In this document: positions 2,425 through 61,044 of the stretch, in pieces
How the letters are laid out: the number at the start of each line of letters is the position of its first letter
Numbering within the stretch: position 1 is the stretch's first letter
Assembly (NCBI GenBank): GCA_902728285.1
Contig: CACVBU010001035.1
Location: 691,176 to 755,175 of the forward strand
Length of the DNA: 64,000 nt
From: Clytia hemisphaerica
Lineage: Eukaryota > Cnidaria > Hydrozoa > Leptothecata > Clytiidae
Direction of reading: 5' to 3'
The notes under the pieces: model-generated
The model's database searches: none
The model's input: the letters and a program-made list of their open reading frames with translations, nothing else
What the model was told of the DNA's origin: nothing
Program-made: the position numbers and the translations under genes

Positions 2425-2496
2425 GAGAACTTGCAACTGCAAGAAGAGCTGCAGAATTGGCAGGATCAGTGCCATATCAACTTACACCTATACCAG
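2425..2496 (+). CDS. 72-nt coiled-coil cassette exon E, intact copy
   Basis: The acceptor tatttaccag precedes GAG and the donor gtaaaa follows CAG. The 24-codon phase-0 exon starts ENLQLQEELQNWQDQC and ends INLHLYQ. Leucines and the Gln/Glu-rich pattern suggest an amphipathic helix, and exact 72-nt length with matched phases means copies can be added or skipped without changing frame. About 19 copies lie in the window. The function of the parent protein is not recognised. Confidence 0.6.
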
Positions 2497-4604: not shown

Positions 4605-4684
4605 GAGAACTTGCAACTGCAAGAAGAGCTGCAGAATTGGCAGGATCAATGCCACATAAATCATCATTTGTATCAGATTGTTGA
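4605..4684 (+). CDS. cassette exon E copy with read-through end (..HHLYQIVEGR stop)
   Basis: The acceptor and 72-nt body match the family (ENLQLQEELQNWQDQC). The donor gtaat is replaced by attgttgaaggacgttag, so the frame continues IVEGR and stops. A sister copy at 13810 has the same exit but was interrupted by a transposon after gttgaag. It may be a terminal version of exon E or simply a lost donor. Confidence 0.45.
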
Positions 4685-4990
4685 AGGACGTTAGTTATGT
4701 TGAATTACTTTCATTTGATAAGGTTGAAATAAACATAGCATGTGCATCTTGTGGGATTTCATCGTGACCTATATATTCCAATTGAAAAATGCTACGCCAC
4801 TAACCACTTCTTCAGGAAATCATGTAGCTGTAAGAGGAGCTGGCGCAATGGCAGGACCAGTGCCACAATTTTATTTAAATTTGAAAAAATAATCCGAAAT
4901 CTTCAGTTATTGCAAAAGGTTCCATCTAGACTTACAGATCGGTGAATCGAAAACACTAGTCTCGTTTGTTTGATGAATCAGATTTTATGA
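4680..4990 (+). repeat. duplicated block with degraded exon E (copy of 14532-14880)
   Basis: This roughly 300-bp stretch is nearly identical to 14532-14880. It contains a degraded exon E after cttcag (GAAATCATGTAGCTGTAAGAG, two stops), then repeat R1. The pair documents a segmental duplication within the window. Confidence 0.6.
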
Positions 4991-5950: not shown

Positions 5951-6273
5951 TTTTGTATTTTTATCTTATATTTATCACTATCTTAATTAATTGATTAAAT
6001 TTTTACATTCGCCAATGTATTTTACTTTTTTACGTTAATTTTCCAAATTAGTTCTCGTCAACGTTAAAACGATTTAAATGAATTCACTTATAATAATTTC
6101 TTTAAAAATCCTTACTAAAAATCTGTAGTTTGGTATAAAAATGGTAACACAAAATGTAAAGATCCCCAACTAAACTTTTTAATATTCCTCACCATGGATT
6201 CAAAATTTCCAATTTCTTAGCCACCAAGAGAGGTAGAGATGTATGCTAGAGATTTTTCTTCAAATTTATACAG

Positions 6274-6533
6274 GAAAAAAAGACATAATAAAGGAGGTAA
6301 ACAATGGTTTCATAAATGAGATGCAGCTCTGGCACGGTACCAATGAAAAAGCCGCGTCTCTTATATGCCATCAATCATTTGACCCACGCCTTGTGAAGAA
6401 TTGTCTTTTTGGAGAGGGAGCTTACTTTTCATATTTACCCAATTATTCAATGAATTTGATCTATTCAAAGCCTGGTACAGGAGAACTTTGTAATCTATTT
6501 TTGGCTGACGTTCTGGTTGGTTACTCCGCTTTG
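6274..6533 (+). CDS. PARP catalytic-domain exon (partial gene)
   Basis: The exon follows tttatacag and ends at GCTTTG before gtaatt. The translation contains the PARP signature in order: LWHGTNEKAASLI (nicotinamide-binding His in HGT), FDPRLV, FGEGAYFSYLPNYS (NAD-contacting Tyr), then ADVLVGYS. PARPs transfer ADP-ribose from NAD+ to proteins or nucleic acids. The third conserved position (Glu in polymerising PARPs, hydrophobic in mono-transferases) lies beyond the exon, so activity type cannot be assigned. The LWHGT and 'FDPR' forms look more like the PARP14/tankyrase side than PARP1. No PARP partner exon was found in the window; it may be a fragment captured in the duplications. Confidence 0.75.
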
Positions 6534-6783
6534 GTAATTATGTTAATTACATACACTATTATATTACGCTTAAATCAGAACTATTCAATTTTCACATGAA
6601 GCTTTTTCGCTTGCGATTTCTTAGCACACGGCAATTCTTGTTGCACCTATTTTACATTGACCTTTCAATTGGTCAATTTTCAACTTTAAAATGAAAACCG
6701 TGAAAACATGAAATTTCTTTTTCTTTCTTTTTATAATTTTTCCTTTTGGTAAGAATTTTAAAAGCATTTTGAAATGGAACACT

Positions 6784-7330: not shown

Positions 7331-7494
7331 ATTTTAATTAATTGATTAATTTCTACATTTTACAATGCTTTTTACTTTTTTTACGTTAATTCTCCAAATT
7401 AGTTCTCGTCAATATTAAAACGATTAAAATAAATTCACTTATCATTACAATTTCCTCAAAAACTCTTGCTAAAAATCTGTAGTTTGGCATTAAA

Positions 7495-7693
7495 ATGGCA
7501 GCAAAAAATGTAGAAAAAGATCCTCAACTAAACTTTTCAATATTCCTTACCATGGATTCAAAATTTCGAAATCAACCTTTTATTATGAATACTTCCATTC
7601 GTTATCACTCGAAGCTACGAAAAACCTGGTACCGTCATTGACATGGACCATTTAATGGCGGCAATTCCCGTCATTGGACGTGCAAAGAATTAG
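7495..7693 (+). pseudogene. first exon plus exon B mini-gene, copy 3
   Basis: MAAKNVEKDPQ start at 7495, then exon B at 7615-7693 with YEKPGTVIDMDHLMAAIPVI and TAG. The acceptor has changed from ctccag|G to ctcgaag, which may weaken it. Otherwise it is almost identical to 5752-5950. Confidence 0.4.
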
Positions 7694-7886
7694 TTTTGTA
7701 TTTTTATCTTATATTTATCACTATTTTAATTAATTGATTAAATTTTTACATTCGACAATGTATTTTACTTTTTTACGTTAATTTTCCAAATTAGTTCTCG
7801 TCAATATTAAAACGATTAAAATAAATTCACTTATCATTACAATTTCCTCAAAAACTCTTGCTAAAAATCTGTAGTTTGGCATTAAA

Positions 7887-8090
7887 ATGGTAGCAAAAAA
7901 TGTAGAAAAAGATCCTCAACTAAACTTTTCAATATTCCTTACCATGGATTCAAAATTTCGAAATCAACCTTTTATCATGAATACTTCCATTCGTTATCAC
8001 TCGAAGCTACGAAAAACCTGGTACCGTCATTGACATGGACCATTTAATGGCGGCAATTTCCCGTCCTTGGACGTGCAAAGAATTAGTTTT
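7887..8090 (+). pseudogene. first exon plus exon B mini-gene, copy 4 (frameshifted)
   Basis: The start is MVAKNVEKDPQ, and exon B begins about 8007. An extra T in ggcaatttcccg breaks the HLMAAIPVIG frame. This is a tandem duplicate of copy 3 at a spacing of about 392 bp. Confidence 0.5.
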
Positions 8091-8547
8091 GTATTTTTAT
8101 CTTATATTTATCACTATTTTAATTAATTGATTAAATTTTTACATTCGACAATGTATTTTACCTTTTTACGTTAATTTTCCAAATTAGTTCATCGTCAATG
8201 AAAACCAGAAAATTATTTTCTTCAAACAGCAATTGCTGGCAATGGTTAACATATTGCATTAAATATTTTTTTATTTTTTCAACTTGTCTGAAAAACCTTT
8301 GCCTAAAGAGTACATTAGCTTCCTTTACAACCAATCCAAGCAATTTTCAATGAATTTTGCTTTGGAAAAGACTTTAAAGCCAAATTTAGTTTAATAGCTT
8401 TAAGACCATTGAGTATCGATAATTTTCGCAAATTTAACTGTGTATTTTTTTAGCTTTATCAACGAAGCAAAAAAGCTTTCGATTATATGTATTCGGTATG
8501 TAATATAGAGCTGTTTCGATTTTATTCTGTTGTTTAATTTATTTTAG

Positions 8548-8619
8548 AACGTAATCGGTGAACTTCAACTCATCAACAACATGAGGGGAGAAATTGTAAG
8601 ATTAACAAGGGAAAGAGAT
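8548..8619 (+). CDS. 72-nt coiled-coil exon F (NVIGELQLIN type), copy 1
   Basis: The acceptor ttattttag and donor gtgaga enclose exactly 24 codons in phase 0, beginning NVIGELQLINNMRGEI and ending RERD. Heptad-like hydrophobics and many charges suggest coiled coil. A second copy at 20768-20839 has 24 codons with conservative changes, so the frame has been maintained in both. That favours recent function of at least one. Confidence 0.65.
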
Positions 8620-13809: not shown

Positions 13810-13901
13810 GAGAACTTGCAACTGCAAGAAGAGCTGCAGAATTGGCAGGATCAATGCCACATAAATCATCATTTGTATCAGATTGTTGAAGCAACGGATT
13901 A
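13810..13901 (+). CDS. exon E copy with read-through end, interrupted by a MITE
   Basis: The body is identical in type to 4605 (..HHLYQIVE). The read-through tail changes from IVEGR to IVEATD because a transposon begins right after gttgaag. The stop at 13899-13901 lies inside the transposon end. Confidence 0.5.
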
Positions 13902-14531
13902 GAATAGGTGGATTAAGAACTCATAGAAAACACTCCTCGTTAGGTTATCAAACTTTTTTACGAGTTTGCTAGCAATTAAAACTTGATAAGTTGTAAAAAA
14001 GTTGTAAAAAATCATTACTTTCAACATTTTCATTGGTCATTACGTATCACGTGGTACATTTTAAATAAGAAAATGCACTTTTTTAGCCCTTTCTATCCAA
14101 TGCAGAAATTAGCCAAATAATTTGAAATTTATTTTCCTAATTCTAAATACAGTCTTCTTTCACCAGTATGCAACCCATTCGTGACCCATCGATAGTTTCT
14201 TAGTTATAGACCATACGTTAATTTTCACTTATCTGAAGATTGCCATTGACAAAAGATTAAAAATTTACATTAAAACTGGTCTAGCGTTTGTTGATGCTAA
14301 AACTTAAGTGCAGGATTTAAAATATTTGCAAAATCATCAAAATTGATCGAATCATAGGACAAATTCGTTTTCGAAACTGTATAAATTGGAAAATTGTTCT
14401 TATAAAAACAATGAAAAAACTAAACGAGGAGTGCGCAGAGTCATTTACAGATTTTTCTTGTAACAATGAGAAGACAATGGATCTCTCTTGGGAGCAACGA
14501 GAGAAGTTAATCCACCTATTCTAATCCGTTG
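13892..14531. mobile_element. 640-bp MITE with 7-bp target duplication
   Basis: The terminal inverted repeats are CAACGGATTAGAATAGGTGG and its reverse complement ending CTATTCTAATCCGTTG. Flanks are GTTGAAG at 13885-13891 and 14532-14538. The uninterrupted paralogue at 4678-4684 has a single GTTGAAG followed by the same downstream sequence, which directly supplies the empty site. There is no ORF, so this is a non-autonomous DNA transposon, possibly hAT-like given a 7-8 bp duplication. Confidence 0.8.
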
Positions 14532-15774: not shown

Positions 15775-15903
15775 GAGAACATGCAGCTGCAGCTGCAGCA
15801 GGGGCAAACTTCATCGAAAATTCTTTTGTACAGCAACAACGTAAAAGGTAAGCTTCAAGAAGAGCTGGTGAATTGGCGTCATATTAATCTACATCTCTAC
15901 CAG
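15775..15903 (+). CDS. variant cassette exon E with an in-frame internal insertion
   Basis: The borders tttaccag and gtaatc match the family, but the exon is 129 nt (43 codons), still phase 0. It begins ENMQLQLQQGQTSSK, has an inserted stretch KILLYSNNVKGK, then resumes LQEELVNWRHINLHLYQ, lacking the DQC residues. An internal aaag|gtaagc inside the insert could act as an extra donor. The frame stays open despite insertion plus deletion. Confidence 0.5.
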
Positions 15904-15972: not shown

Positions 15973-15995
15973 AGGAGAACTTGCAACTAGTCTGA
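15973..15995 (+). pseudogene. 5' fragment of an exon E copy
   Basis: tctatttaccag GAGAACTTGCAACTAG matches the start of exon E and then ends in a stop and unrelated sequence. Confidence 0.4.
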
Positions 15996-17289: not shown

Positions 17290-17540
17290 ATGAATTTATT
17301 TTTGTTCCTTCGGCGCTTCTTTGTCACGTGATACTTAGTATAAGGGCGGAAAGAATATCGAGAGTAATCACACGTCGATAGATTTCTTATTTTCCCACCC
17401 ACCCGCCCTTTTATGTAGCTCTATAACATTTACTTTATTATTTTGATAATTTGGTGTTTATATTACGTTAGTTTATGTATGTTTACAAATAGGATTTGTA
17501 AGACATTTCTTTTCGCACTCTTGCTATCTAGACGACCATA
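17290..17540 (+). repeat. split direct repeat A1
   Basis: Matches 20084-20334 at a constant offset of 2794, with a few substitutions. It ends in TATCTAGACGACCATA. Confidence 0.9.
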
Positions 17541-18549
17541 ATGAAATTTGTTTTGTCAAACATTATCAAATTAAAAACTAGATCTTTATACAAAGCCATT
17601 GATGAAGCTGTCTCATGGGATGGGAAGTTTAACATTTTCAATTATCCAGACGCTCAGAGAAATTCTTTTTTGGAGAGACAATGTAAATGTATTAAAAAAC
17701 AAAAGCGTGTTAAAGTCCCAAGTGAAGTATACTATCTATTCTGACGCAAGTAGCAGTGGGATAGGAGATGTATTAAAAGAGAATTCGATTTTAAATGTGT
17801 GTAACAAAATGTTTGATGTAGAGGAAATTGATAGAAGTTCAACTTGGAGGGAACTCGAAGCGATCAGATTCGGATTGGATTCATTTTGCCATAAGTTAAG
17901 TAACTCTTACATATCTTGGATGACAGATAATAGAGCAGCCATGTATGTTTCTTCAGGTGGTAGCAATAAGCCCCATTTACAAGAATTAGCACTAAGAATC
18001 TACGAATTGTCTCGTAACTTTAATATAAATTTGGAAGTGAATTGGGTTCCTAGGGACGAGAATCGAGTAGCGGACAGAGTTTCTAAAATAATAGATCCAG
18101 ACGACTGGGAAATCACAGAGGAAATTTTGCACTTTCTCGAACATCGTTGGGGTAACTTTACAGTCGACAAATTCGCTAATTTTGACAATGCAAAATGCGA
18201 GAGGTTTAATTCCAAGTATGTTGTGCCCGGTACAGAGGCTGTTGACGCCTTCACTCAAGACTGGCGCTTAGAGCGAAATTTATTAGTTCCTCCTGTCAGT
18301 CAGATTCCTCAAGTCTTACGCCTTTTAAAAAGCCAACCAGGAATTAAAGGGGTGCTCGTCATACCTTTTTGGACAGCGTCTTCTTTTTGGCCCCTTCTAA
18401 GAGAAGGGGATGAATTTTCATATTTTGTCAAGGATTACGTTATTTTCGAAGACACGTCGAACTTGTTACGCCTTGGGAGGTACAAATACTCTTTACTCGG
18501 TTCTCCACGATATAGAGGACGTATCATAGCCTTAGAGGTTATTAGTTGA
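17541..18549 (+). CDS. RT thumb remnant plus RNase H and C-terminal domain (one frameshift)
   Basis: The 17541 frame (LYKAIDEAVSWDGKFNI) resembles the DIRS-type RT connection. It passes by a one-base shift near 17665 into the 17599-18549 frame. There RNase H motifs appear in order: YSDASSSGIG (first Asp), WRELEAI (Glu), MTDNRAAM (Asp) and NRVADRVSK (last Asp). After this comes VDKFANFDNAKC.. EAVDAFTQDW.. FWTASSFWPLL, a region commonly seen behind RNase H in DIRS-like and other animal YR elements. RNase H removes the RNA template during reverse transcription. Without RT the protein cannot support its own copying. Confidence 0.75.
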
Positions 18550-18589
18550 TTCAGAAGGATAGTCCTTATCACCTTATAGAAAGAAGCTG

Positions 18590-18822
18590 AATTAATTTTA
18601 ACATGTATTTCTACACCCAAGGAAAAGGGTGAGGCAGGGGTTGATTAGTGGTATCAACTGAGGCCGTTTTAATTTTAACATGTATTTCTGCACCCAGAAG
18701 AAGGGTGAGGCAGAGGTTGATTAGTGGTATCAACCAAGGCTATATTAATTTTGAAATATATTTTCTACACCCAAAAAGAAGGGTGAGGCAGGGGTTGATT
18801 AGCGGTATCAACTGAGGCCAGA
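18590..18822 (+). repeat. three ~76-bp direct repeats between RNase H and recombinase ORFs
   Basis: Three imperfect units each contain taattttaacatgtattt-type starts, 'cacccaaaaagaagggtgaggcag' and 'ggttgattagtggtatcaac'. They fill almost the whole inter-ORF gap. Their role is unknown: regulatory, recombination or translation-coupling are all only possibilities. Confidence 0.7.
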
Positions 18823-18875
18823 GTTTAGCGACTAGGTCGCTATGGCAGCTTGGCTGCCGTAGCATAAAGTCAAAA

Positions 18876-19937
18876 ATGCCTCATATTTACGACAAAATAG
18901 TAATTTGCTCTTGCATTTCACTTATACCTTTAGCACAAGTCGCCCAAGACCTGTCTTCTCGTGTTGATGATCCACAGCTTAAAGAGCTCGCTACCGGAAT
19001 CGGAGATATCCTGACGAAAGCTCGTGCAGAGAGTACAATTAACAAATATAGCTGCTACTTCAAAAAATGGGAAAGATGGTGTGCGACATTCGAAGAGGTC
19101 CAGCCTTTTCCAGCCAAAGACTTTCACTTCGTTCTATATATCATCAGCCTTATCCAGCTTGGCGAATCTTTCCACGTTATAGAATCTGTATTCTACGCCG
19201 TGAAACATTTCCACAATGTGGCTTCGAAGCCAGATCCAACATCTTCTACGCTAGCCGAATACATCCTCGAAGCTGCAAAAAGAATCTGCCACAGAAAAAG
19301 TTCGAAAAAAGAACCAATCACTTCAGATCACATTCGTAAGATCTTTCAATTGATTAATGGGGACCAGGCTAACCTGCTTGATTTGAGGAATTTTACCATT
19401 ATCATCTTATCGTATGCTGGATTTCTACGTTATGATGAGGTTTCAAATTTAATCTTTGGGGACATTCTAGTCTTTGAGACGTATATGAAACTATTCATAG
19501 AAAAGTCAAAAACAGACCAACATCGTGAAGGGGCTTGGGTCTATATTGCCAAATTAGATTCCCCCTTTTGTCCTGTTAAGACACTGCTTAGATTTACTAA
19601 GAATGCAAACATAACCAACGATAATGAGTACCTATTCCGTGCCACTTCTTTCTTTAAGAAAAAGGGCATTCATAAACTGAGAAATAAGAACAAACCCATT
19701 TGTTACTCAACGGCCAGGTCCGCTGTTTTGCTTTATATCAAGAGAATTGGTCTTGACTTAAAACTTTTTGGACTCCACAGCCTAAGGAGGGGCGGAGCTA
19801 CGGAAGCCGCTAACCGGGGAGTTAATGATAGACTTTTCCAGAAGCATGGGAGGTGGAAAACCGCTGGTGTAAAGAACGGATATGTTCAAGAAGATATAAA
19901 TAGTCTTTTGAAGGTTTCTCTAGGGCTAGGCCTCTGA
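18876..19937 (+). CDS. tyrosine recombinase, apparently intact
   Basis: 353 codons, uninterrupted. The N-terminal half (TINKYSCYFKKWERWC..) fits a SAM-like core-binding domain. The catalytic half shows GFLRYDEVSNL (first Arg), LFIEKSKTDQHREG (Lys region), LHSLRRGGATEA (H-x-x-R), HGRWKTAGVKNGY (second His and the Tyr nucleophile). These enzymes integrate the circular DNA of DIRS-order elements without a target duplication. The ATG at 18876 is simply the first in frame; conserved sequence starts around 18950. Confidence 0.85.
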   Translation: MPHIYDKIVICSCISLIPLAQVAQDLSSRVDDPQLKELATGIGDILTKARAESTINKYSCYFKKWERWCATFEEVQPFPAKDFHFVLYIISLIQLGESFHVIESVFYAVKHFHNVASKPDPTSSTLAEYILEAAKRICHRKSSKKEPITSDHIRKIFQLINGDQANLLDLRNFTIIILSYAGFLRYDEVSNLIFGDILVFETYMKLFIEKSKTDQHREGAWVYIAKLDSPFCPVKTLLRFTKNANITNDNEYLFRATSFFKKKGIHKLRNKNKPICYSTARSAVLLYIKRIGLDLKLFGLHSLRRGGATEAANRGVNDRLFQKHGRWKTAGVKNGYVQEDINSLLKVSLGLGL

Positions 19938-19970
19938 TACATACCTCTTTCTCTCTGTGACAAGTTACAG

Positions 19971-20083
19971 GTTATCTAGACGACCATACTATGTTTTATA
20001 TACTAGGTATATAAAGTGATAAGAAGAAGAAGTAAAATAATAAATAAGGTTATTTTCGTTTGAGTGTACGAATTAGAAAATAA
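19971..20083 (+). repeat. split direct repeat B1
   Basis: Matches 20317-20429 at a constant offset of 346. It begins GTTATCTAGACGACCATA and ends ..GAATTAGAAAATAA. Confidence 0.9.
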
Positions 20084-20334
20084 ATGAATTTATTTTTGTT
20101 CCTTCGGCGCTTCCTTGTCACGTGATACTTAGTATAAGGGCGGAAAGAATATCGAGAGTAATCACACGTCGATAGATTTCTTATTTTCCCACCCACCCGC
20201 CCTTTTATGTAGCTCTATAACATTTACTTTATTATTTGGATAATTTGGTGTTTATATTACGTTAGTTTATGTATGTTTACAAATAGGATTTGTAAGACAT
20301 TTCTTTTCGCACTCTTGTTATCTAGACGACCATA
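20084..20334 (+). repeat. split direct repeat A2
   Basis: Second copy of A. Its last 18 bases are at the same time the first 18 bases of B2. Confidence 0.9.
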
Positions 20335-20429
20335 CTATGTTTTATATACTAGGTATATAAAGTGATAAGAAGAAGAAGTAAAATAATAAATAAGGTTATT
20401 TTCGTTTGAGTGTACGAATTAGAAAATAA
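20317..20429 (+). repeat. split direct repeat B2 (element right end)
   Basis: Second copy of B. The next bases (ttgtctttt) belong to the host segment, which resumes a block homologous to 8190-8540. Confidence 0.9.
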
Positions 20430-20767
20430 TTGTCTTTTACTTTTAGTTTAGTGTGTTACAATGGCTGGCAATGGAGAACATATTTGGTGAATATTTTTAG
20501 AATTTTTTTCAACTTGTCTGAAAAAGCTTATGCCTTACAGGGTACATTAGCTTCTTTTATAACCTATCCAAGCTATTTTCAATGGATTTTGCTTTTGAAA
20601 AGATTTGAAAGCCAAATTTAGTTTTATAGCTTTAAAACCATGGAGTATCGATAATTTTAGCAAACTTAACTGTGTATTCGTTTAGCTTTATCAGGCTTTC
20701 GAGTATATGTATTCGGTATGTAATATAGAACTGTTTCCATTTTATTCTTTTGTTTGATTTATTATAG

Positions 20768-20839
20768 AACGTAATCGGAGAACTTCAATTAATAAATGAC
20801 ATGAGGGGAGAGATATTCAGATTGCGAAGAAAAAGAGAT
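20768..20839 (+). CDS. 72-nt coiled-coil exon F, copy 2
   Basis: Acceptor tattatag, donor gtgaga. NVIGELQLINDMRGEI, ending RRKRD, is open and in phase 0. The flanking 430 bp are homologous to 8190-8650. Exon G follows 259 bp downstream in compatible phase, so F-G-E may represent the true order of the gene. Confidence 0.65.
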
Positions 20840-21098: not shown

Positions 21099-21155
21099 GA
21101 CGCACAGAGGATAGCGGCAGAGCAAGCAGCCAATAATTTCAATCACGCGAAATTG
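21099..21155 (+). CDS. 57-nt exon G (DAQRIAAEQAANNF)
   Basis: A strong pyrimidine tract and tcctgtag precede it, and gtaaga follows. 19 codons in phase 0, ending HAKL. Alanine- and Gln-rich and probably helical. It is the only copy seen in the window. It lies between exon F and the exon E array in the same phase. Confidence 0.6.
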
Positions 21156-21932
21156 GTAAGAACATGGTCCGTATAAGAAACAAGACCCTTCAAGACCCTC
21201 TTGTTTCTTTCTATTGTTGCGAACTTGGACTTACGTTGAGGAGTATTTGATAATGTGATCAAAATCTGAGCAAATTGATTTTTATATCGTTATTAACAAA
21301 GAAAAAAGTAAACAAAAAGTTACAAAAGGCTTCCGGACCAGGATTTTTTATACGAAGTATGGTAAGTGTAAGTATTTTTTCTTATGACACGGGCAAGACA
21401 CGCTACAAAAGCACAATGAACTTTATACAGTTTTTGTTTTATACCTAGAACCTAGTAATATACTCTTTTGGTGCTTAATTGTAGGGGGGTCATTTCGCAA
21501 TTTTTGGAGAAAAAAGTTACCGCAATATCACATTATAATAATCCCCCTTTTTATGACCTATATGCTACGAAGTGCATACACTGCAACTGGACAGGCTGAA
21601 TCAACTTCGACACCCTGGTAAACATGGCAACGGCAACAAGGGTTCCATCTTGATTTTATCGTGTAAAAAGTCGCAATTCATTTAAAAAACCTTAACAGCC
21701 TTTTTGGCCATTTCTTATTAAACTTTCCGCTACAAAATCCAGCCATCCGGAGCTTTATAAAGCTCTTTCACGATAATAGGGCAGTAGTTGGAACTTTTCC
21801 TAACCGGAAATAACCTTAATATCAGTTTATCTTTCTCTAAACCCCCCCTCAATTTTAAGACTATGTAATTGAAAATCGCTCCGCCACTAACCACTTTTTT
21901 TCATCTTAAAGTTAGCTATGTCAATTTACCAG

Positions 21933-22004
21933 GAGAACTTGCAACTGCAGCTGGAGCTGCAGAATTGGCAGGATCAGAGCTATATATAACTTTACTTCTA
22001 TCAG
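21933..22004 (+). pseudogene. array copy 1, stop and lost donor
   Basis: ENLQLQLELQNWQDQSYI then TAA, and the exon ends CAG followed by tt instead of gt. The same two defects occur in copy 8, so these two are sister copies. Confidence 0.6.
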
Positions 22005-22076
22005 TTAATTCTATTTCATCCAAATTTGAAAAAAATCCTAAATCTTACAGTTTACTTTATTATGTCTATTTACCAG

Positions 22077-22148
22077 GAGATCATGCAGCTGCAGCAGGAG
22101 CTGCAGAATTGGCAGGATCAGTGCTATATAAAACTTCACCTCTATCAG
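22077..22148 (+). CDS. array copy 2, intact cassette exon
   Basis: EIMQLQQELQNWQDQC, ending IKLHLYQ, 24 codons in phase 0 with tatttaccag and gtaatt. Gln/Leu-rich amphipathic helix. Confidence 0.65.
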
Positions 22149-22221
22149 GTAATTCTATTTCATTCAAATTTGAAAAAAAATTCCAGATCTTACAGTTTAC
22201 TTAATTATGTCTATTTACCAG

Positions 22222-22293
22222 GAGATCATGCAGCTGCAGCAGGAGCTGCAGAATTGGCAGGATCAGTGCTATATAAAACTTCACCTCTATCAG
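22222..22293 (+). CDS. array copy 3, intact cassette exon
   Basis: Protein identical to copy 2; borders tatttaccag and gtaatt. Confidence 0.65.
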
Positions 22294-22366
22294 GTAATTC
22301 TATTTCATCCAAATTTGAAAAAAAATTCCAAATCATACAGTTTACTTAATTATGTGTATTTACCAG

Positions 22367-22438
22367 GAGATCATGCAGTTGCAGCAGGAGCTGCAGAATT
22401 GGCAGGATCAGTGCTATATAAAACTTCACCTCTATCAG
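22367..22438 (+). CDS. array copy 4, intact cassette exon
   Basis: One synonymous-looking difference (cagttg for cagctg) relative to copies 2 and 3. Same borders and phase. Confidence 0.65.
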
Positions 22439-22511
22439 GTAATTCTATTTCATCCAAATTTGAAAAAAAATTCCAAATCTTACAGTTCACTTAATTATGT
22501 CTATTTACCAG

Positions 22512-22583
22512 GAGATCATGCAGCTGCAGCAGGAGCTGCAGAATTGGCAGGATCAGTGCTATATAAAACTTCACCTCTATCAG
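22512..22583 (+). CDS. array copy 5, intact cassette exon
   Basis: Same protein as copies 2-4. Its downstream intron is 75 nt and is of the tattttattt type shared with copies 6 and 7, marking a junction between two sub-arrays. Confidence 0.65.
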
Positions 22584-22658
22584 GTAATTCTATTTTATTT
22601 AAAGTTGAAAAAAAGAATCCAAAATCTTACAGTTTACTTAATTATGTCTATTTACCAG

Positions 22659-22731
22659 GGAGAACTTGCAACTGCATAAAGAGCTGCAGCATTGGCAGGA
22701 TCAATGCCACATAAATCTACATTTATATCAG
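22659..22731 (+). pseudogene. array copy 6, one extra G at the acceptor
   Basis: taccag is followed by GGAGAAC, so the exon is 73 nt if the usual AG is used, which would shift the frame. The rest (ENLQLHKELQHWQDQC) is open. Confidence 0.55.
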
Positions 22732-22809
22732 GTAATAATCCCATTTTATTTAAATTTGAAAAAAAGAATCCAATATCTTACAGTTTACTTAATTATGTCT
22801 ATTTACCAG

Positions 22810-22881
22810 GAGAACTTGCAACTGCATAAAGAGCTGCAGCATTGGCAGGATCAATGCCACATAAATCTACATTTATACCAG
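22810..22881 (+). CDS. array copy 7, intact cassette exon
   Basis: ENLQLHKELQHWQDQC, ending INLHLYQ, 24 codons. It differs from copies 2-5 at several residues, so it belongs to a distinct subtype shared with copy 6. Confidence 0.6.
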
Positions 22882-22969
22882 GTAATAAACCCATTTTATT
22901 TAAATTTGAAAAAAAGAATCCAATATCTTACATGCTTTTTTTGTCTCCAAGAACTACACACAGTCTAAG

Positions 22970-23650
22970 TTCGAAAAAATATAATTTCCACTCTTAATCC
23001 TTTTCCTATTTTGTATAAAACCTTCTTTAAAAAAAGTATAATTTGTTTAAAATGAACCCCCACTCTACACATGTTTGTGACGTCATATCGTTCATATTTT
23101 CTATGAATTTTTTGTATGTTCATCAACTTTAAAGCTTGATATTTCGTGAACAAGAAATAGTAGGAAGATAGTAAAATCATTTTTGATTTCAGGAAGGATT
23201 CAGTTTTACGTGGACTAAATTTGGGGTTGTCAGCTTATTCCAAAAAAAAAGTTCAATTTTTTCAATCGACTCTAAAATCCTTTTCACTCACTTGTTTCGA
23301 TAGTTCAAACACAGTTTTACTCCACTTAAAAATGGCTTTTTAATAAATTCTGTCTCTTGGTTAAACCATTTGTGGATAAAAAGTTATGGCTACACTAAAA
23401 AAGTTAAAGTTCTCTATCAACTAAAAGTAAGAGCTTTTCCAATTACTTTCTGAACGTGTTTACGTCAAACAGATGGCTCGACCTATTCCCCTAACAAAAT
23501 ACGCATTGCTTTAAAAGATTAGATTTTCTGTAAACATAAAGAGCTATATCTTTTAAAAGAGAAGTTTTTAGAGAAAAATATTTTCAGAGGTCATTCCTTG
23601 GAAGTATGTGATGTGATTTCGGTATTTTCAAAAAATGTTTAGTTCCCCTT
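22970..23650. other. spacer inside the exon array
   Basis: No exon or repeat unit was recognised. AT-rich sequence that may be an ordinary long intron between two blocks of cassettes. Confidence 0.4.
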
Positions 23651-23661
23651 TCATTTACAGG

Positions 23662-23733
23662 GAGCACCTGCAACTGCAGCAGGAGCTGCAGAATTGGCAG
23701 GATCAGAGCTATATATAACTTTACTTCTATCAG
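23662..23733 (+). pseudogene. array copy 8, stop and lost donor
   Basis: EHLQLQQELQNWQDQSYI then TAA, with CAG followed by tt. An extra G sits at the acceptor. It shares defects with copy 1. Confidence 0.6.
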
Positions 23734-23808
23734 TTAATTCTATTTTATCAAAATTTGAAAAAAAGAATCCCAAATCTTACAGTTTACTTAATTATGTCTA
23801 TTTACCAG

Positions 23809-23878
23809 GAGACCTTGCAACTATAGGAGGAGCTGCAGAATTAGCAAGATCAATGCTATATAAAACTTCACCTCTCAG
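23809..23878 (+). pseudogene. array copy 9, degraded
   Basis: 70 nt, with TAG at codons 6 and 12 and a two-base loss at the 3' end (cctctcag). A donor gtaata is still present. The following sequence matches the first bases of the window (tattttttcagatttgaaaa). Confidence 0.6.
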
Positions 23879-24251
23879 GTAATAATCCTATTTTTTCAGA
23901 TTTGAAAAAGAGTCGAATCTTGTTTCAGAAAAGGTCCATGTATAGACTATAGACTATTTCTAAAATCTCGAAAATCTTAAAATATAATACAATTTGAAAA
24001 AACGATGCCATAGTACACAAAATGTCGAGACTTAAAGACAGTTTGCTGATTCTTAAAAAAAGAGCGTCACTTTTAGTCCTTGACGTTATCGATTTATTAC
24101 TTAGGTGAATGCATGTCTCAACCTGAAATGATTAGATATTTTGTCGATATTTTATCTTTTATTTATCTTTATAATTTCCATTAATTGATTAACTTTTTAC
24201 ATTTTACATTGTTTCCTTACTGCCTTACTTAATATTCCTTACATTGCTAAA

Positions 24252-24284
24252 ATGGCTGCAAGAAATGTTGATGAAGACCCTCAA
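24252..24284 (+). CDS. first coding exon, best-preserved copy (MAARNVDEDPQ)
   Basis: ATGGCTGCAAGAAATG opens 11 codons, followed by a canonical gtgagt. Other copies in the window have lost this donor. Exon C follows 178 bp downstream. This copy therefore supports the interpretation of MAA(R/K)N as a genuine first exon, with the repeated upstream block as promoter or 5'UTR. Confidence 0.5.
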
Positions 24285-28415: not shown

Positions 28416-29146
28416 AATCTTGGAAAAAAATTCAATCTTGGAAAAAAATTCAATCTTGGAAAAAAATTCAATCTTGGAAAAAAATTCAATCTTGGAAAAA
28501 ATTCAATCTTGGAAAAAATTCAATCTTGGAAAAAATTCAATCTTGGAAAAAAATTCAATCTTGGAAAAAAATTCAATCTTGGAAAAAAATTCAATCTTGG
28601 AAAAAAATTCAATCTTGGAAAAAAATTCAATCTTGGAAAAAAATTCAATCTTGGAAAAAATTCAATCTGGAAAAAAATTCAATCTTGGAAAAAATTCAAT
28701 CTTGGAAAAAAAATTCAATCTTGGAAAAAAATTCAATCTTGGAAAAAAATTCAATCTTGGAAAAAATTCAATCTTGGAAAAAAATTCAATCTTGGAAAAA
28801 AAATTCAATCTTGGAAAAAAATTCAATCTTGGAAAAAAATTCAATCTTGGAAAAAAATTCAATCTTGGAAAAAAATTCAATCTTGGAAAAAATTCAATCT
28901 TGGAAAAAAATTCAATCTTGGAAAAAATTCAATCTTGGAAAAAATTCAATCTTGGAAAAAATTCAATCTTGGAAAAAATTCAATCTTGGAAAAAATTCAA
29001 TCATGGAAAAAATTCAATCTTGGAAAAAATTCAATCTTGGAAAAAATTCAATCTTGGAAAAAATTCAATCTTGGAAAATTTCAATCTTGGAAAATTTCAA
29101 TCTTGGAAAAATTTCAATCTTGGAAAAATTTCAATCTTGGAAAATT
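28416..29146. repeat. 17-19 bp minisatellite (AAAAAATTCAATCTTGG)
   Basis: About 40 units varying mainly in the length of the A run. Long frames reading KKFNLG or KIQSW in three phases are repeat artefacts. The array is interrupted at its right end by a MITE and resumes for about two units after 29778. Confidence 0.85.
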
Positions 29147-37704: not shown

Positions 37705-39002
37705 GGTGTCAGGAAAATTGCCCCCGAGAAAATTGCCCCCCGGAAAACTGCCCCCCGGAAAATTGCCCCCCGGAAAACGGCCCCCCGGAAAATTGCCCCC
37801 TAGGAAAATTGCCCCCAGAAAATTGCCCCCCAGAAAATTGCCCCCTAGGAAAATTGCCCCCCGGAAAATTGCCCCCTATTTTTCCATTTTTCGAAACTAA
37901 ATCTAACTCAATTTTCAACATTTGGGAGATTTTGGATTACGCAATTTTACGTGATCGCGTCTTAACGGATTAAGAGATCTAGAATATTTTGGTCCAACGG
38001 TTGCAGGTTGCAGCCGTAATTTTCATTAAGTTGACGCTTTTTATAAGGAATAATGTGGTTTAACCATGGAATACAGAGAAAGCGTTTTCTCTGTTTAGCG
38101 ATAGTCAATTTCAATGTGTTTTATACTGTATTTCTTTCGCTATTCAAGTATTTTCTTTATGGTTTTACAAAATTTCTTGGTCATATGGAATGGATAACTT
38201 CATTCTTGCTATATTCCTCACGCTAACCATTGATCTGCTTTGCATGTTTTAGTTTTTAGTTTTTTCTTAAAGAAAAAAGACGCCTCAAAAACGACTTTTA
38301 CAAGTTTTGTATGAGGTGGAGAAAGATAGTCGAGTAATAAAATCACTTTCAAAAAAATCTTTCCCCATTTCTTAACCCTAAGCGCCCTATCCGTGCTATC
38401 TTAAGCTAAGGGAACTAATTTTTACTAACATGCCAAAATAAGTTGTGGGAACTATTTAAATTAAAATTTCAGTTTTCTTGGCTAAATAACCCCTGAAATT
38501 CAACAAAGTTGCTCAAAATAAGATGAAATAGAACAGATTTGCGCTGTCATTCGCTAAAATTAATTCCAACCACAGTTAAAAAATTAATTTTTCGAAAATT
38601 TTCTACCCAGGACATTGTTGATCCAACCCCTCCTCCGCTTATCAATTTTTCGGAATCTGAAACTTCTTTTTTGTACGGATTATGCTGTTTTAGCCTTTTT
38701 TCCAATCCACCCCCGCTGACCCCCGTTTAATAGGTACCCTAAGAGTAATTCAAAACTACTTAATTTTACAGCTACAATGGCCATTTGAAGTTTCATTGGA
38801 TTTTATAAAAAAGTGGAAAAAAAGATGGGGGGGGGCAATTTTCCGGGGGGCAATTTTCCTAGGGGCAGTTTTCTGGGGGGCAATTTTCTGGGGGGCAGTT
38901 TTCCTAGGGGGCAGTTTTCCTAGGGGGCAATTTTCCGGGGGGCAATTTTCCGGGGGCAGTTTTCCGGGGGGCAATTTTCTCGGGGGCAATTTTCCTAGAA
39001 CC
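37705..39002. mobile_element. 1.3-kb DNA transposon with minisatellite arms and 8-bp target duplication
   Basis: Flanks GTGACGGG (37697-37704 and 39003-39010) duplicate eight bases of the RT gene. The ends GGTGTCAGGAAAATTGCCCC and (inverted) GGTTCTAGGAAAATTGCCCC are followed by about ten 15-16 bp units of GGAAAATTGCCCCCC on each arm, inverted relative to each other. The ~950-bp centre (37877-38826) has no transposase. An 8-bp duplication suggests hAT-like mobilisation by a partner element. Confidence 0.85.
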
Positions 39003-49019: not shown

Positions 49020-49978
49020 CTAGCACTCAAGAAAGGAAGTGATGGAATGTTGGGCACGCAAGCGCTGGGACAAAGGCATGTGCAGGTAAAGGTAAATAGC
49101 GTCAGACTTCCAGTCACCCATGACAGCTATAGTGTCCAGCGGGACGCCAGCTTCAAGGGCAAGGGAAGCACCACCCCTTCTGAAGGAATGGGAACCATAC
49201 TGAGCGGAATTGAGACCTAAACGAGTGAGGAAGAACTGCAGTGAATGCATGAACTCCTTATACGTGAAGATCCGGTAAGTGACACGAGAAGAATCCCTCC
49301 AGCAAAAGGCCTGGTCATTGGGACGAGTATGAGGAGTGAGAGAGAACGCACGGGACACGGCCCAAACTGGACACAGGGGAGAAGAGCTTGCAACCAGTGG
49401 AATGGTAACATACGTTGACCAAACTGGATCGTCTTACTCCACCTGACCCTGATCAGAATTGAAGACCCAGAAAAGCTAAAGTCTGAACGAGTGAGGTAGG
49501 TCAAGGGGGAGAACTCTGACACAGAAGAAGGCAGGAGATGGCTCTCACGGAAAAACCCAAAAAAAGAGACCAAGCAGACTGCCCAAAACGACGCATGCTT
49601 ACTATCCATGAGATTGAGGAGACCACGGATACGAAGCAGGATGTCTGTGGTCATAGGGAGCCTTGGGAGAGGAGGGGAGCCTAAGGTGCGCTTGATACCC
49701 TTCAGGACAGTGGAGAGGGTCCAGTTATCCGTCAGTGGGTTAGGGAGGCCCTGGTCCCTGTGAAAAATACCCACAAAATTAATATATATACAAACAGATT
49801 GCGGCAAAAGAAATCTAGCTAGGTATGCAGCATACATACAGAGGTGGACAGTAGAAATAGGTGCTGGCTCAATGCCCAGTAGGCTGCAAAAACGGAAGTA
49901 TGTATTGCGGTGAGTACGGTAGGCCTTCACAGTGTTGGGAGCATAGGTGGCCTGTCTGTAGAATAGGACGTCTGCCAA
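49020..49978 (-). pseudogene. Ngaro tyrosine recombinase, one frameshift
   Basis: The first frame (49978 down to about 49380) has the core-binding region (NTVKAYRTHRNTYFRFCSLL), HRDQGLPNPLTDNW, and FFGFFRESHLLPSS with the first catalytic Arg. The second frame (49358-49020) has GSHSFRRGGASLALEAG (H-x-x-R) and MGDWKSDAIYLYLH (second His position replaced by Asp or Trp, then Tyr). The two frames overlap near 49360, a single indel. The enzyme would integrate the circular DNA form of the element. Confidence 0.85.
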
Positions 49979-50001
49979 GAGAGAGGAGGACAGTGCTCGA
50001 C

Positions 50002-51558
50002 CTAAAAGGCAGAAGAAAAACAGAGGCTAGAGGAGTAAAGACCCAGCAGAAAGAAGTATGATAAGGGAGACATGTGTAGCGTGGCAGGGGCTACAAGGGC
50101 TGGCATCCCCCCGGAGGCAAGCAGATGGTGACAAAAAGCTTGCATGTTAGGACGGAAGTGAAGACGAGAGATATGATCTGCCAGAACATTCAATTTTCCC
50201 GGAATATGAAATGCCCGAAGACGGAAATTGTACATGGCAGAACACCAAAAGAGCCGTCTCAGGTAAGTCATCATAACCGGATTTTTTGTGGTACCCTTGT
50301 TTAGCATAGCAACAGCCGCTTGGTTGTCACAGTAAACGTGGACTACCTTATTCTTGAATGATTCCGCCCAACGCTCCGCAGAAAAAACTACACATAAAGC
50401 TTCCTTGTACGTGATATGAAGACCTGACAGTTCAGGAGCATCCACCAGAAGATTAGAATAGAACCAATCCTCTCCAAAGGATGCACCGATTCCCCAGGTG
50501 CATGCATCTGTGTGGAGGTTAGTAACAGGGCGTGAGTCATGGAATGAACGAAACCCATTGAAAACTTCCAAAAAACTAACCCACCAATCTAGGTCTTTGA
50601 AAAACTCCTCTGAGAGCAAGCACTTAGCAGACTGGGAGGCAAGGGGGGACATGAGATCAAGGATCCTCCGAAGAAAGGTTCTACCGCCATGAACCACCTT
50701 GCAGGCCCAGTTAAGGCGACCCGCTAATTGTTGAAGCTGTCTCTTGGACGCTCGCACTCTAGTTTGAAAAGAGAATAGCAGGTCCTTGAGATCCCTGAGC
50801 TTCCTTTGAGACAAAGAAAGGGACAAGGACTGTGTGTCAATGTCCACACCTAAAAAGGTAAGTTTCTGGCAGGGTTGGACCAACTTGCTTGGGCTTATCA
50901 TGAAACCCAGTTCAAGTAAGAGGGCACAGAGGGTGTCAAATGCTCGCTGACATTCTTTGAATGTACGGCCAACTACAAGAAAGTCATCCAAGTAAACAAC
51001 CAGTTTAGAGAATCCTTTCTTGGCCATCATGCGCTTAACAGACTGTGTGATACGATGAAAAATACCAGGAGCACTGCGAGCTCCAAACGGAAGACGTGTG
51101 TCTATTAGGTAGGTGGAATGTCGGTCATCCTTGAACCGCCACTTCAAACCTAGTGCTGAGTAGTTTCCAGGGTGGACGGGAACAGAGCGATAGGCCCTGC
51201 GAAGGTCCACCTTAGCAGTGTAAAAGTCCTTCCCTATCAGTTTAGTAGCATCATCTAGGGTCTGGAACTTTTGTTTTTCAATGTCAATGAAAGAGTTTAC
51301 CCCACGCCCCGGAGGCATGGAGCAATCGTGGATTATGCGCAAATCCTCAGAGTCTGGCTTTGGAACGGCTCCAAGTGCACTGACAATGGTAGGTTTGCAA
51401 TTAGCAATGCGATAATTTCCAGCCGCTAGTTCCTCGAGAATGGTGGCTTCAACCTTCTCTTTGGCACCTGGGCTGACAGCAGATGTGTAGTTGTCCACCT
51501 CGGCAATCGAGATGGTAGCAACTCCAGAAGATTTTTCAAATTTTGATTTTTTTTTCAA
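50002..51558 (-). CDS. Ngaro reverse transcriptase and RNase H, open
   Basis: 518 codons. RT: LGAVPKPDSEDLRIIHDCSM, KVDLRRAYRSVPVHP (first Asp), LPFGARSAPGIFHRI, LVVYLDDFLVVG (YLDD active site), LTFLGVDIDT. Connection/RNase H: LHTDACTWGIGASFG (Asp), TYKEALCVVFSAERW (Glu), VYCDNQAAVAML (Asp), LNVLADHISRL (last Asp). All catalytic positions are present. It makes the element's cDNA. The ATG at 51558 lies in the inserted sequence boundary, so the natural N-terminus is probably cut. Confidence 0.9.
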   Translation of the reverse strand: MKKKSKFEKSSGVATISIAEVDNYTSAVSPGAKEKVEATILEELAAGNYRIANCKPTIVSALGAVPKPDSEDLRIIHDCSMPPGRGVNSFIDIEKQKFQTLDDATKLIGKDFYTAKVDLRRAYRSVPVHPGNYSALGLKWRFKDDRHSTYLIDTRLPFGARSAPGIFHRITQSVKRMMAKKGFSKLVVYLDDFLVVGRTFKECQRAFDTLCALLLELGFMISPSKLVQPCQKLTFLGVDIDTQSLSLSLSQRKLRDLKDLLFSFQTRVRASKRQLQQLAGRLNWACKVVHGGRTFLRRILDLMSPLASQSAKCLLSEEFFKDLDWWVSFLEVFNGFRSFHDSRPVTNLHTDACTWGIGASFGEDWFYSNLLVDAPELSGLHITYKEALCVVFSAERWAESFKNKVVHVYCDNQAAVAMLNKGTTKNPVMMTYLRRLFWCSAMYNFRLRAFHIPGKLNVLADHISRLHFRPNMQAFCHHLLASGGMPALVAPATLHMSPLSYFFLLGLYSSSLCFSSAF

Positions 51559-52480
51559 AATCTATCCTATCTTGTAGAGCTTTGAAAAAGAAAGAAAATG
51601 AGGGGTCATAGGCCTCCAGAGGATTAGTGGTTGTAAAGATATTCAAATTTTAGTTTCAAAAATTTGACTAAAAATGTCAAAAAAAAGGTTAGGAAAATGG
51701 CTTGGAAAAATTCGAAAAATGTGTCAAAAAAGAAAAAAAAGAAATTTTCCAGTCATGCTTCTTAAATTTTGCATATCTCTTTTTCTAGTGTAGCTAGAGA
51801 CCTCAAATTTGGAGGGAGAATTCTTTGATGGTGTTAAAATATTATTATATAAAAATATTTGTAAAATATTTAGTATATTTATCAAAATAACGAAAGATAT
51901 ATCTTTTTTTGAAAAAAGAAGACATTGCATTGTTTAATTTTTTTTTTTGAAGAAAATAGCTTGGAAAAGGTTGAAATGAGTCAAAAAAGGTGGTAGGACC
52001 CATTTTCAAGGGGCCTCTGGAAATGGAGGAACAAAAACTTATGAGTAAAGAATAAGTTTTTCTGAAAGGAGAAACCCCAAATGAAAAGAAAATCCATTTC
52101 GGCAGAAATAAAAACTTTTTTTTGGGACATTCCCATGCTAAAGAAGCAAAAAAGTTAAAAAACTACATGAAAATGAAAGAACTAGAATTAGCGATTGTGA
52201 TTTTTGAATTCCTCACCCTTTTTCTGATAAACATACAAAGTTTCAGCCTCCAAATACATTTTCCTCCGTTTCCAGACACATTTGTTCTTCGATAGTTGCT
52301 AATTTTTTTTCTCCCGTCGGCAAACAATTTTCAAAATGTTGCAAGACGTTCGGCATTTTACCAATTTGCCGTCTAGCCCGTGTCCACAGTGTTATATACC
52401 GCTGGAAAGCTAAGATCACAGGCTTTCATTTAGTAAATACCATAAGGGAACGCTTTAGCATACATAGAAGAAAAGTTCCA
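51559..52480. other. ~0.9-kb unexplained insertion between pol N-terminus and RT
   Basis: The conserved pol start ends around 52490 and RT begins at 51558. The intervening AT-rich sequence has no frame that continues either. No clear terminal repeats were found. It could be a MITE, an intron or a rearrangement. Confidence 0.4.
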
Positions 52481-53744: not shown

Positions 53745-55005
53745 GGCAATGGCTCGATGGATAGAGCGCTGGCTTCCGAAACTGAAGGTCTTTCTTTGGT
53801 GGTGGTTCGAATCCGAGTCTGCTAAATTACGTGGGTTACGTGCGTGTCGTGGGTTCGTGGGTTCGTGGGTTCGTGCCCTCGTGGGTGTTCGTGGGTTAAA
53901 ATGTCTCGTGGGTCCGTGGGTTCGTGGGTCAAAATATCTCGTGGGTCCGTGGGTTCGTGGGTCCAAAAGAAAATCACGTGGGTTGAAATTGCTCGTGGGT
54001 TTGTGGGTTCGTGGGTCCAAAAAAATCACGTGGGTTAAAAAATTCTAATAATTTTCCAAAAATAAATTATAAAAATTCATATGGGTTATCGGGTATTTTT
54101 TAGAGTAGTCGAAAAAATTGTAAAAGTTTAAAATTGAAAAACTTCCTCATTGTTCTTCGTTCTTCTCACCCTATAATTAACTCAATAGTTTTTATGAGAA
54201 GAAAGAGCGAAATATGGAAAATGTCAAAAAACATTTCCAGCTGATATGATTTTAATATTAATATTTCTACCGCTGTCCTTAAAAAAACGACTTCCATCGA
54301 AAGCTTTATAATATATATAGCCCAATTAACGTCACTATGAGGAATCTTATTTTTATCTCCCTTTACGGTTTACCATGTTCCTCCTACCACACAATTAATA
54401 CAAGAGGTCTTTTAAAAGAATCGTTTAATTTATAATTATTAAAATAAAAACATTTCCTGGGTATTTATAAAAAGTCATGTCTATTGGTTATAACATTAAC
54501 AATTCTTCTTTATCAACTTAGCTGAAATACGGTCCTTCGGACGGTAAAATTGCGCAAGGGTTTCAAATATCGAAACACGCGAATCGCAAAGAAATTTACA
54601 AAAGAAATAATTGAATCATTATTAAGTGTTTTAGGGTTTATTAGAAGATGATGGATTTAAGAATAGATATGAAACAGCGAAATGTAAACATATCTTACAC
54701 GATCTTACAGTATTGGGATTTTTGGAACATTTCGGACCAACGGAAAATTTTGGACCCACGCACGGGAAAATTTGGACCCACGAGCGATTTTGACCCACGA
54801 ACCCACGAGCAATTTCAACCCACGTGATTTGTTTTTGGACCCACGAACCCACGAACCCACGAGATATTTTGACCCACGAACCCACGAACCCACGAGACAT
54901 TTTAACCCACGAACACCCACGAGGGCACGGACCCACGAACCCACGAACCCACGACACGCACGTAACCCACGTAATTTAGCAGACTCTTCGAATCCCACTC
55001 GGTGC
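53745..55005. mobile_element. foldback element with tRNA-like head and GTGGGTTCG arrays
   Basis: The left arm (53815-54045) and right arm (54735-54985, inverted) pair for about 200 bp, both starting with gagtctgctaaattacgtgg and filled with GTGGGTTCGTGGGTC-type units. In front of the left arm, 53743-53815 resembles a tRNA: GGCTCGATGGATAGAGC (D arm, A box) and GGTGGTTCGAATCC (B box), with an Arg-like CTTCCGAA anticodon region, but stems do not all pair. It lies inside the Ngaro element. The ~690-bp centre has no ORF. Confidence 0.75.
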
Positions 55006-60960: not shown

Positions 60961-61044
60961 TAAAGATTCGTCATGACGGTACTCTAGCTCACAAGTCTCA
61001 AGATCCGTTGACGGTACTCTAGCTCCAGAGCTTAAAGATACGGT

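What the first reader, a model, noticed from the sequence alone, without database searches (positions are those of the whole stretch)
21933..23878. Tandem array of interchangeable 72-nt coiled-coil exons
Nine copies of one exon, each with its own acceptor and (mostly) donor, lie in a row; four consecutive units have an exact 145-bp period. All intact copies are 72 nt in phase 0 and encode 24 residues with heptad-like Leu/Gln spacing. Any number could be included, skipped or chosen one at a time without breaking the frame, giving a coiled coil of adjustable length. Two subtypes (QQELQNWQDQCY and HKELQHWQDQCH) exist. Arrays like this in other animals underlie mutually exclusive splicing, but here it may equally be recent duplication on the way to decay. 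Spliced use is inference.
Basis: partly seen in the sequence, partly recalled or inferred. Interest (0 to 1): 0.75.

Follow-up and report, generated by a model that had tools for sequence, protein, structure and literature searches.

The report
Tandem array of duplicated coding exons
A gene in this stretch of DNA carries nine copies of one small exon, five of them undamaged and shaped by selection on the protein they encode; it looks like a real but ordinary tandem exon duplication, and RNA data are needed to show whether the copies are used.

Summary
The array is real: nine copies of one phase-0 exon (21933-23878), c2-c5 exactly 145 bp apart. Five (c2-c5, c7) are clean; c6 has an extra G at its acceptor (73 nt); c1 and c8 share a stop and a lost donor; c9 has two stops and a deletion. 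Ten whole or partial relatives lie at 1-16 kb: a locally amplified, partly decayed gene family. The exon evolved as protein: codon-model omega 0.09. Among c2-c5 exons have 1 silent change; introns 5 (i2-i4, p=0.11) or 9-10 (adding i1 or i5, p=0.011, 0.006). Between subtypes, third codon positions often differ more than introns (c5/c6 9/24 vs 5/105, p=7e-5; 5 of 9 pairs p<0.05), as reported for primate L/M opsins, where intron gene conversion is the explanation. A model NVIG-DAQR-array-KRSMYRL-stop stays open for 32 of 32 subsets of the clean copies, 0 of 32 with 73-nt c6. Heptad pattern and a docking site for mutually exclusive splicing were not found. Expression is untested.

The parts
20768..20839 (+). 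Candidate upstream exon NVIG (72 nt, phase 0, AG/GT flanked): NVIGELQLINDMRGEIFRLRRKRD
   Evidence: paralogue at 8548-8619
21099..21155 (+). Candidate exon DAQR (57 nt, phase 0, AG/GTAAGA)
21933..22004 (+). c1: damaged copy, in-frame TAA, donor GT changed to TT
22077..22148 (+). c2: intact exon, subtype E (EIMQLQQELQNWQDQCYIKLHLYQ)
22222..22293 (+). c3: intact exon, identical to c2
22367..22438 (+). c4: intact exon, one silent change from c2
22512..22583 (+). c5: intact exon, identical to c2; its downstream intron is of the c6/c8 class
22659..22731 (+). c6: subtype H with an extra G at the acceptor (73 nt; 69 nt if a second AG is used)
22810..22881 (+). c7: intact exon, subtype H (ENLQLHKELQHWQDQCHINLHLYQ)
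23662..23733 (+). c8: damaged copy with the same TAA and lost donor as c1, extra G at the acceptor
23809..23878 (+). c9: damaged copy, two stops, 2-nt deletion (70 nt)
22149..22809 (+). Span holding introns i2-i6 (73-78 nt each; 4-14% different in pairs among c2-c6) with c3-c6 between them
23929..23952 (+). Candidate terminal exon in phase 0: KRSMYRL stop; its first 7 residues match the exon that begins at 78
2425..2496 (+). Intact relative with donor GTAAAA
13657..13728 (+). Intact relative with donor GTAAAA, beside a broken copy at 13558 and a donor-less copy at 13810
4605..4676 (+). Relative without donor; the frame runs on to IVEGR and a stop, and AATAAA stands at 4728-4733 (read by eye): a possible terminal-exon form

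Best explanation
A tandemly duplicated coding exon in the 3' part of a multi-exon gene of a locally amplified family. Shown: nine copies, five clean; protein-level constraint over the history of the exon; damage in c1, c8, c9 and a frame-shifting base in c6; introns more alike than exons between subtypes in several pairs. Inferred: the gene reads NVIG-DAQR-array-KRSMYRL-stop, and one or several of the interchangeable phase-0 copies c2-c5 and c7 are included as ordinary optional cassettes, giving a protein tail with a variable number of 24-residue units; c1 is skipped or acts as a decoy. Also inferred: the E exon reached four copies by unequal exchange of 145-bp intron-plus-exon units; exchange and gene conversion keep the introns alike, while selection on the protein keeps the E and H exon sequences apart.
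For: Codon model on 9 copies (c2-c7, 2425, 13657, 4605): omega 0.09, lnL -223.0, against -235.8 and -237.0 with omega 1 and kappa fixed. Random-change simulation, 5 pairs at two ts/tv settings: P from 0 of 5000 to 0.077. Inside c2-c5: 1 silent exon change against 5 intron changes in i2-i4 (p=0.11), 9 in i1-i4 (p=0.011), 10 in i2-i5 (p=0.006). Damaged c1 and c8 against c2: exon and intron differences about equal (8/72 vs 6/72 and 6/73), dN/dS about 1.2. Third positions vs flanks, 9 pairs: p<0.05 with an exon excess in 5: c5/c6 9/24 vs 5/105 (7e-5), c6/13657 10/24 vs 4/73 (8e-5), NVIG 9/24 vs 36/339 (0.001), LLIN 12776/24463 10/25 vs 12/110 (0.0013), c2/13657 7/24 vs 6/73 (0.015). 28 of 171 informative site pairs fail the four-gamete test among 16 copies. 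c2-c7 share the acceptor TTTACCAG (c6 with the extra G) and donor CAG|GTAAT; U1 duplex -8.1 kcal/mol, stronger than 8 of the 10 donors of other exon kinds that were scored (the YLYQ donor there was cut one base out of register). 32 of 32 subsets of c2-c5, c7 keep the frame to the same stop.
Against: No RNA evidence. I assigned no start codon or promoter to this copy (by eye; no promoter scan was run); a retroelement ends at about 20437, just upstream of NVIG. The terminal exon is truncated. Constraint may be past, not present. In the within-array test i1 and i5 may be older than the amplification; without them p is 0.11. Exons made identical by recent conversion could mimic purifying selection. 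dN/dS of 1.2 for c1/c8 rests on one silent difference, and against c4 it is 0.5. Exon against flank, 14 pairs: LLIN 1836/24463 goes the other way (4/75 vs 17/110, p=0.036) and 8 pairs, 2425/c2 (p=1) and 2425/13657 (p=0.48) among them, are not significant. Third positions: no significant excess in 4 of 9 pairs (LLIN 12776/1836 p=0.058, LLIN 1836/24463 p=1, both damaged pairs p=0.68). The exons are short and the pairs are not independent.
Confidence: 0.5

Rival explanations
1. Relic: a once-coding exon array stranded in a dead gene copy, now unexpressed and decaying like much of the cluster.
For: 4 of 9 copies are damaged or frame-shifted; of ten relatives at 1-16 kb only 2425 and 13657 keep the 72-nt frame and a donor; a retroelement sits just upstream; the terminal exon is cut to 7 codons; I found no start exon for this copy.
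Against: c2-c5 show no replacement change while their introns show 5 to 10 changes (chance 0.048 with i2-i4, 0.004 with i1-i4, 0.002 with i2-i5 if rates per site were equal); donors of c2-c7 are intact.
Confidence: 0.36
2. Mutually exclusive splicing: one copy per transcript, chosen by selector-docking base pairing as in Dscam.
For: Equal-length homologous exons in phase 0; the introns share one pairing site at about 21445-21522, where i3 and i4 are matched by 1 and 2 of 100 dinucleotide shuffles. A 14-16 nt A/T helix with 23881-24250 exceeds 20 mononucleotide shuffles (maximum 14) for i2 and i6.
Against: At the upstream region the mean over i2-i6 is reached by 20 of 100 shuffles, i5 by 65 and i6 by 98; best z of 16 tests is -2.8. 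The A/T helix gives no energy signal against dinucleotide shuffles (z +1.1 to +1.4 for i1, i2, i4 and -1.1 for i6). c2-c5 encode the same protein, so choosing among them would change nothing; 72-nt phase-0 exons leave no frame penalty against double inclusion.
Confidence: 0.08
3. Coiled coil of adjustable length.
For: Gln/Leu/Glu-rich first 16 residues; in subtype E the helical moment (1.53 at 103 degrees) is the largest of those computed.
Against: Heptad fit no better than shuffled residues (p 0.40, 0.64, 0.64 for three subtypes; four joined E units 0.46); in the other two subtypes residues 1-16 have no helical excess; 24 is not a multiple of 7; residues 17-24 alternate like a strand (moment 2.2-2.5 at 160-180 against 0.75-1.03 at 100-103 degrees).
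Confidence: 0.04
4. Non-coding satellite that merely looks exonic.
For: Tandem 145-bp period.
Against: Omega 0.09, silent excess also between copies far outside the array (2425, 13657, 4605), splice sites at every clean copy.
Confidence: 0.02

Closest known systems
Titin PEVK region, serial repeated exons (PMC6469411, passages seen)
   Same: Many short homologous exons; exon duplication and loss and tandem duplications are reported; the length of the region varies.
   Different: PEVK is a known protein spring; here splicing, the start of the gene and the protein's role are unknown, and 4 of 9 copies are damaged or frame-shifted.
Dscam exon arrays (PMC3236188, passages; selector model PMC6071210, abstract and passages)
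   Same: Tandem duplicated exons with small introns; a passage gives an average omega of 0.094 (the data set it refers to was cut off in what I saw), 0.09 here.
   Different: That Daphnia study found no gene conversion between exons, and the Dscam model needs docking and selector pairing; here exon sites fail the four-gamete test and no docking site was found.
Primate L/M opsin genes (PMC3213168, abstract and passages seen)
   Same: Exon divergence, silent sites included, exceeds intron divergence between tandem copies; read there as gene conversion in introns with selection against it in exons.
   Different: There also replacement divergence exceeds introns, here first and second positions match the introns. 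Opsins are whole genes; here the copies are neighbouring exon units and scattered exons of one cluster, and no conversion tracts were mapped.

Membership tests
Tandem exon duplication array | Adjacent homologous exons with their own splice sites and compatible phase | tested here: met
   five clean phase-0 copies
Tandem exon duplication array | Copies coding and constrained | tested here: met
   omega 0.09 for the exon family; the test inside c2-c5 alone is p=0.11 to 0.006 depending on the introns used
Tandem exon duplication array | Copies appear in spliced mRNA | not testable with these tools
   no RNA data; no genome held for the window
Mutually exclusive exon cluster (Dscam type) | Docking site complementary to selectors beside each exon | tested here: not met
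   not above shuffles over the introns together; i3 and i4 alone are
Mutually exclusive exon cluster (Dscam type) | Exactly one exon per transcript | not testable with these tools
   no RNA data
Coiled-coil module | Heptad a/d hydrophobic pattern, continuous across copies | tested here: not met
   a simple permutation test, no coiled-coil predictor or structure was run
PARP (ADP-ribosyltransferase) gene | PARP catalytic domain in the same gene as the array | tested here: inconclusive
   PF00644 match in the frame 6237-6599 (E 7.6e-11), about 15 kb upstream of the array; nothing shows that they form one gene

The most novel reading that the evidence does not exclude
The cluster diversifies its exons in place: exon sequences are exchanged as cassettes between copies while the surrounding introns stay nearly uniform, in three exon families (array, NVIG, LLIN). 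It would be a modular, recombining repertoire, perhaps one of recognition or immunity (my guess, from the nearby PARP exon only), with exon choice and exon number both varying between individuals.
Probability: 0.1. Interest if true: 0.8.

Novelty: new member of a known kind. Interest (0 to 1): 0.4.

Why it matters
It is a compact case in which exon age and intron age seem to differ: silent sites of neighbouring exon subtypes are several times more diverged than the introns beside them (c5/c6 7 of 12 against 5 of 105). That lets gene conversion and selection in a young exon array be told apart, with damaged copies in the same array as an internal control. If expressed, copy number would be a simple length dial for a protein tail.

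Tried and rejected
Searches for the exon outside the window: an exact 23-mer and a degenerate 39-mer in viral contigs and a degenerate 48-mer in genome contigs: 0 matches each; these collections hold few or no animal genomes. Two patterns from repeats of the window, tried in the hope of naming the host: 0 matches. The PARP exon found one relative in viral contigs, L001, not followed up. No whole genome is held. Rfam at gathering scores and ARAGORN with the bacterial code: 0 hits in the window. Pfam on six small exons: one weak hit below its cut-off, GM130_C for the array exon, E 0.07, 13.4 bits against 23.5 (DAQR, 19 residues, was too short to scan). PDB search with the VYPY exon: two matches at E 0.9, taken as chance. 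Weak donors as a sign of alternative use: rejected, the array donors score better than 8 of 10 other donors. Paper searches. In what was listed (titles and starts of abstracts; for example 20 of 226, 10 of 36, 8 of 110, 0) I saw no description of this array; with the species unknown this is weak evidence. The codon models ignore recombination although one search points to it. Left out of the four-gamete count: the 30-bp tail at 1-30 and the copy with an insert at 15775.

Full report
Observation. The nine copies are present on the + strand at 21933, 22077, 22222, 22367, 22512, 22660, 22810, 23662 and 23809. TRF reports period 145 with 6.9 copies and score 1453 over 21917-22932. c2-c5 have identical protein sequence and one silent difference; the introns i2-i4 carry private differences, so the units are not a simple assembly stutter. 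The last two copies are separated from c7 by 780 bp.

State of the copies. c2, c3, c4, c5 and c7 are clean 72-nt phase-0 exons with acceptor TTTACCAG and donor CAG|GTAAT. c6 has one extra G after the acceptor. c1 and c8 share a TAA and a GT to TT donor change. c9 has two stops and a 2-nt deletion. 32 of 32 subsets of the five clean copies, the empty subset included, keep the frame from NVIG through DAQR to the stop of KRSMYRL, and 0 of 32 subsets with the 73-nt c6 do. Using the next AG would make c6 69 nt and in frame.

Surroundings. The exon has relatives at 1-30, 2425, 4605, 4816, 13558, 13657, 13810, 14668, 15775 and a stub near 15975, on the + strand. Other phase-0 exon candidates stand in the cluster: LLIN at 1836 (donor GC), 12776 and 24463; NVIG at 8548 and 20768; DAQR at 21099; VYPY at 8875 with weaker relatives at 25050 and 25326; a first-exon unit MAAR/MAAK at 24252, 5752, 7495, 7887 and elsewhere, of which the one at 24252 keeps a GT donor; and terminal exons. 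A PARP catalytic exon lies at 6273-6533 (frame 6237-6599, Pfam E 7.6e-11); all 14 PDB sequences matched at E 0.001 or better are PARP12, 14 or 15. Whether it belongs to the same gene is not shown. A retroelement with an RNase H-like frame of the reverse-transcriptase kind and a tyrosine recombinase frame occupies about 17.3-20.44 kb, so the upstream end of the array's gene is unclear. The label DIRS-like is my recall of that gene content. That the host is an animal is my inference from introns and the PARP12/14/15 likeness.

Selection. On nine copies with an open frame the codon model gives omega 0.09 (lnL -223.0) against -235.8 or -237.0 with omega 1 and kappa fixed. By counting, pairs of intact subtypes have dN/dS 0.04-0.29, one pair 0.00 at saturation and four undefined for saturation; c1 and c8 give about 1.2 against c2 but 0.5 against c4, on one or two silent differences. 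In random-change simulations the observed number of replacements or fewer was reached with P from 0 of 5000 to 0.077 for five pairs and two ts/tv settings. Among c2-c5 the exons have 1 silent change; the introns have 5 in i2-i4 (p=0.11), 9 in i1-i4 (p=0.011) and 10 in i2-i5 (p=0.006). i1 and i5 may be older than the amplification, so this is a hint of use after duplication, not proof, and exon homogenisation could imitate it.

Exons against introns. Of 14 pairs, six have p below 0.05; in five the exon differs more than its flanks (c5/c6 15/72 vs 5/105, p=0.0013; c2/c6 15/72 vs 8/105, p=0.013; c6/13657 14/72 vs 4/73, p=0.012; NVIG 15/72 vs 36/339, p=0.028; LLIN 12776/24463 17/75 vs 12/110, p=0.039). 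LLIN 1836/24463 goes the other way (4/75 vs 17/110, p=0.036). The other eight, the two damaged pairs among them, are not significant. The excess sits in third codon positions (9 pairs): c5/c6 9/24, c6/13657 10/24, NVIG 9/24, LLIN 12776/24463 10/25, p from 7e-5 to 0.0013, c2/13657 7/24, p=0.015; four pairs show no significant excess (LLIN 12776/1836 p=0.058, LLIN 1836/24463 p=1, c1/c2 and c8/c2 p=0.68). First and second positions match the flanks in the five pairs with an excess (p 0.1 to 0.71). So in these pairs the exons seem older than the introns beside them, or the introns are held back. The damaged copies show no excess, which suggests that about 8% intron divergence is the neutral scale. 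Among 16 exon copies 28 of 171 informative site pairs fail the four-gamete test, so exon pieces have been reshuffled or hit twice. The opsin study PMC3213168 (abstract and passages seen) describes exons more diverged than introns between tandem copies and explains it by gene conversion in introns with selection against it in exons; I adopt this as the likeliest cause.

Splicing mode. Pairing of introns with flanking regions does not stand out: best z -2.8 of 16 tests on i1, i2, i4 and i6; for 21156-21932 the mean over i2-i6 is reached by 20 of 100 dinucleotide shuffles, although i3 and i4 alone are reached by 1 and 2. A 14-16 nt A/T helix with 23881-24250 is longer than in 20 mononucleotide shuffles for i2 and i6 but gives no energy signal against dinucleotide shuffles. 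Choice among c2-c5 would also change nothing in the protein. Serial optional inclusion is the simplest mode; this is inference.

Protein. The unit shows no heptad signal beyond its composition (p 0.40, 0.64 and 0.64 for three subtypes; four joined units 0.46), 24 residues do not fit 7, and the last eight residues alternate like a strand. No coiled-coil predictor or structure prediction was run. I do not support the coiled-coil claim.

Verdict. A real, coding, partly decayed tandem exon array in a duplicated gene cluster of an unnamed, apparently animal genome; about even odds that it is in use.

Noticed in passing
6273-6533 (+): Exon encoding part of a PARP catalytic domain (PF00644); by PDB sequence like PARP12/14/15.
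   Followed up: partly
17300-20440 (+): Retroelement with an RNase H-like frame (RVT_3; also a Dam match) and a tyrosine recombinase frame (Phage_integrase); 121-bp direct repeats at 19971 and 20317 (98%).
   Followed up: no
49020-51561 (-): Second element with a reverse transcriptase frame (RVT_1) and a neighbouring frame that looks to me like a tyrosine recombinase (no Pfam match).
   Followed up: no
60943-62398 (-): Frames of a DDE transposase (DDE_3), beside a 59-bp tandem array at 60103-60942.
   Followed up: no
13892-14530 against 4686: By eye: an insertion of about 640 bp with inverted ends interrupts the sequence just after the 13810 copy; the matching place at 4686 is empty.
   Followed up: no
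5752, 7495, 7887 (+): First-exon-plus-upstream unit repeated, partly in a 392-bp tandem (7331-8199).
   Followed up: no
28416-29144: 18-bp satellite (AATCTTGGAAAAAAATTC), about 42 copies.
   Followed up: no
37713-37876 and 38830-38995; 53830-54040 and 54724-54971: Pairs of short tandem arrays in opposite orientation, possibly ends of mobile elements.
   Followed up: no
4605-4733 (+): Exon copy without donor runs into a stop, with AATAAA at 4728-4733 (by eye), so this exon type may also serve as a last exon.
   Followed up: partly
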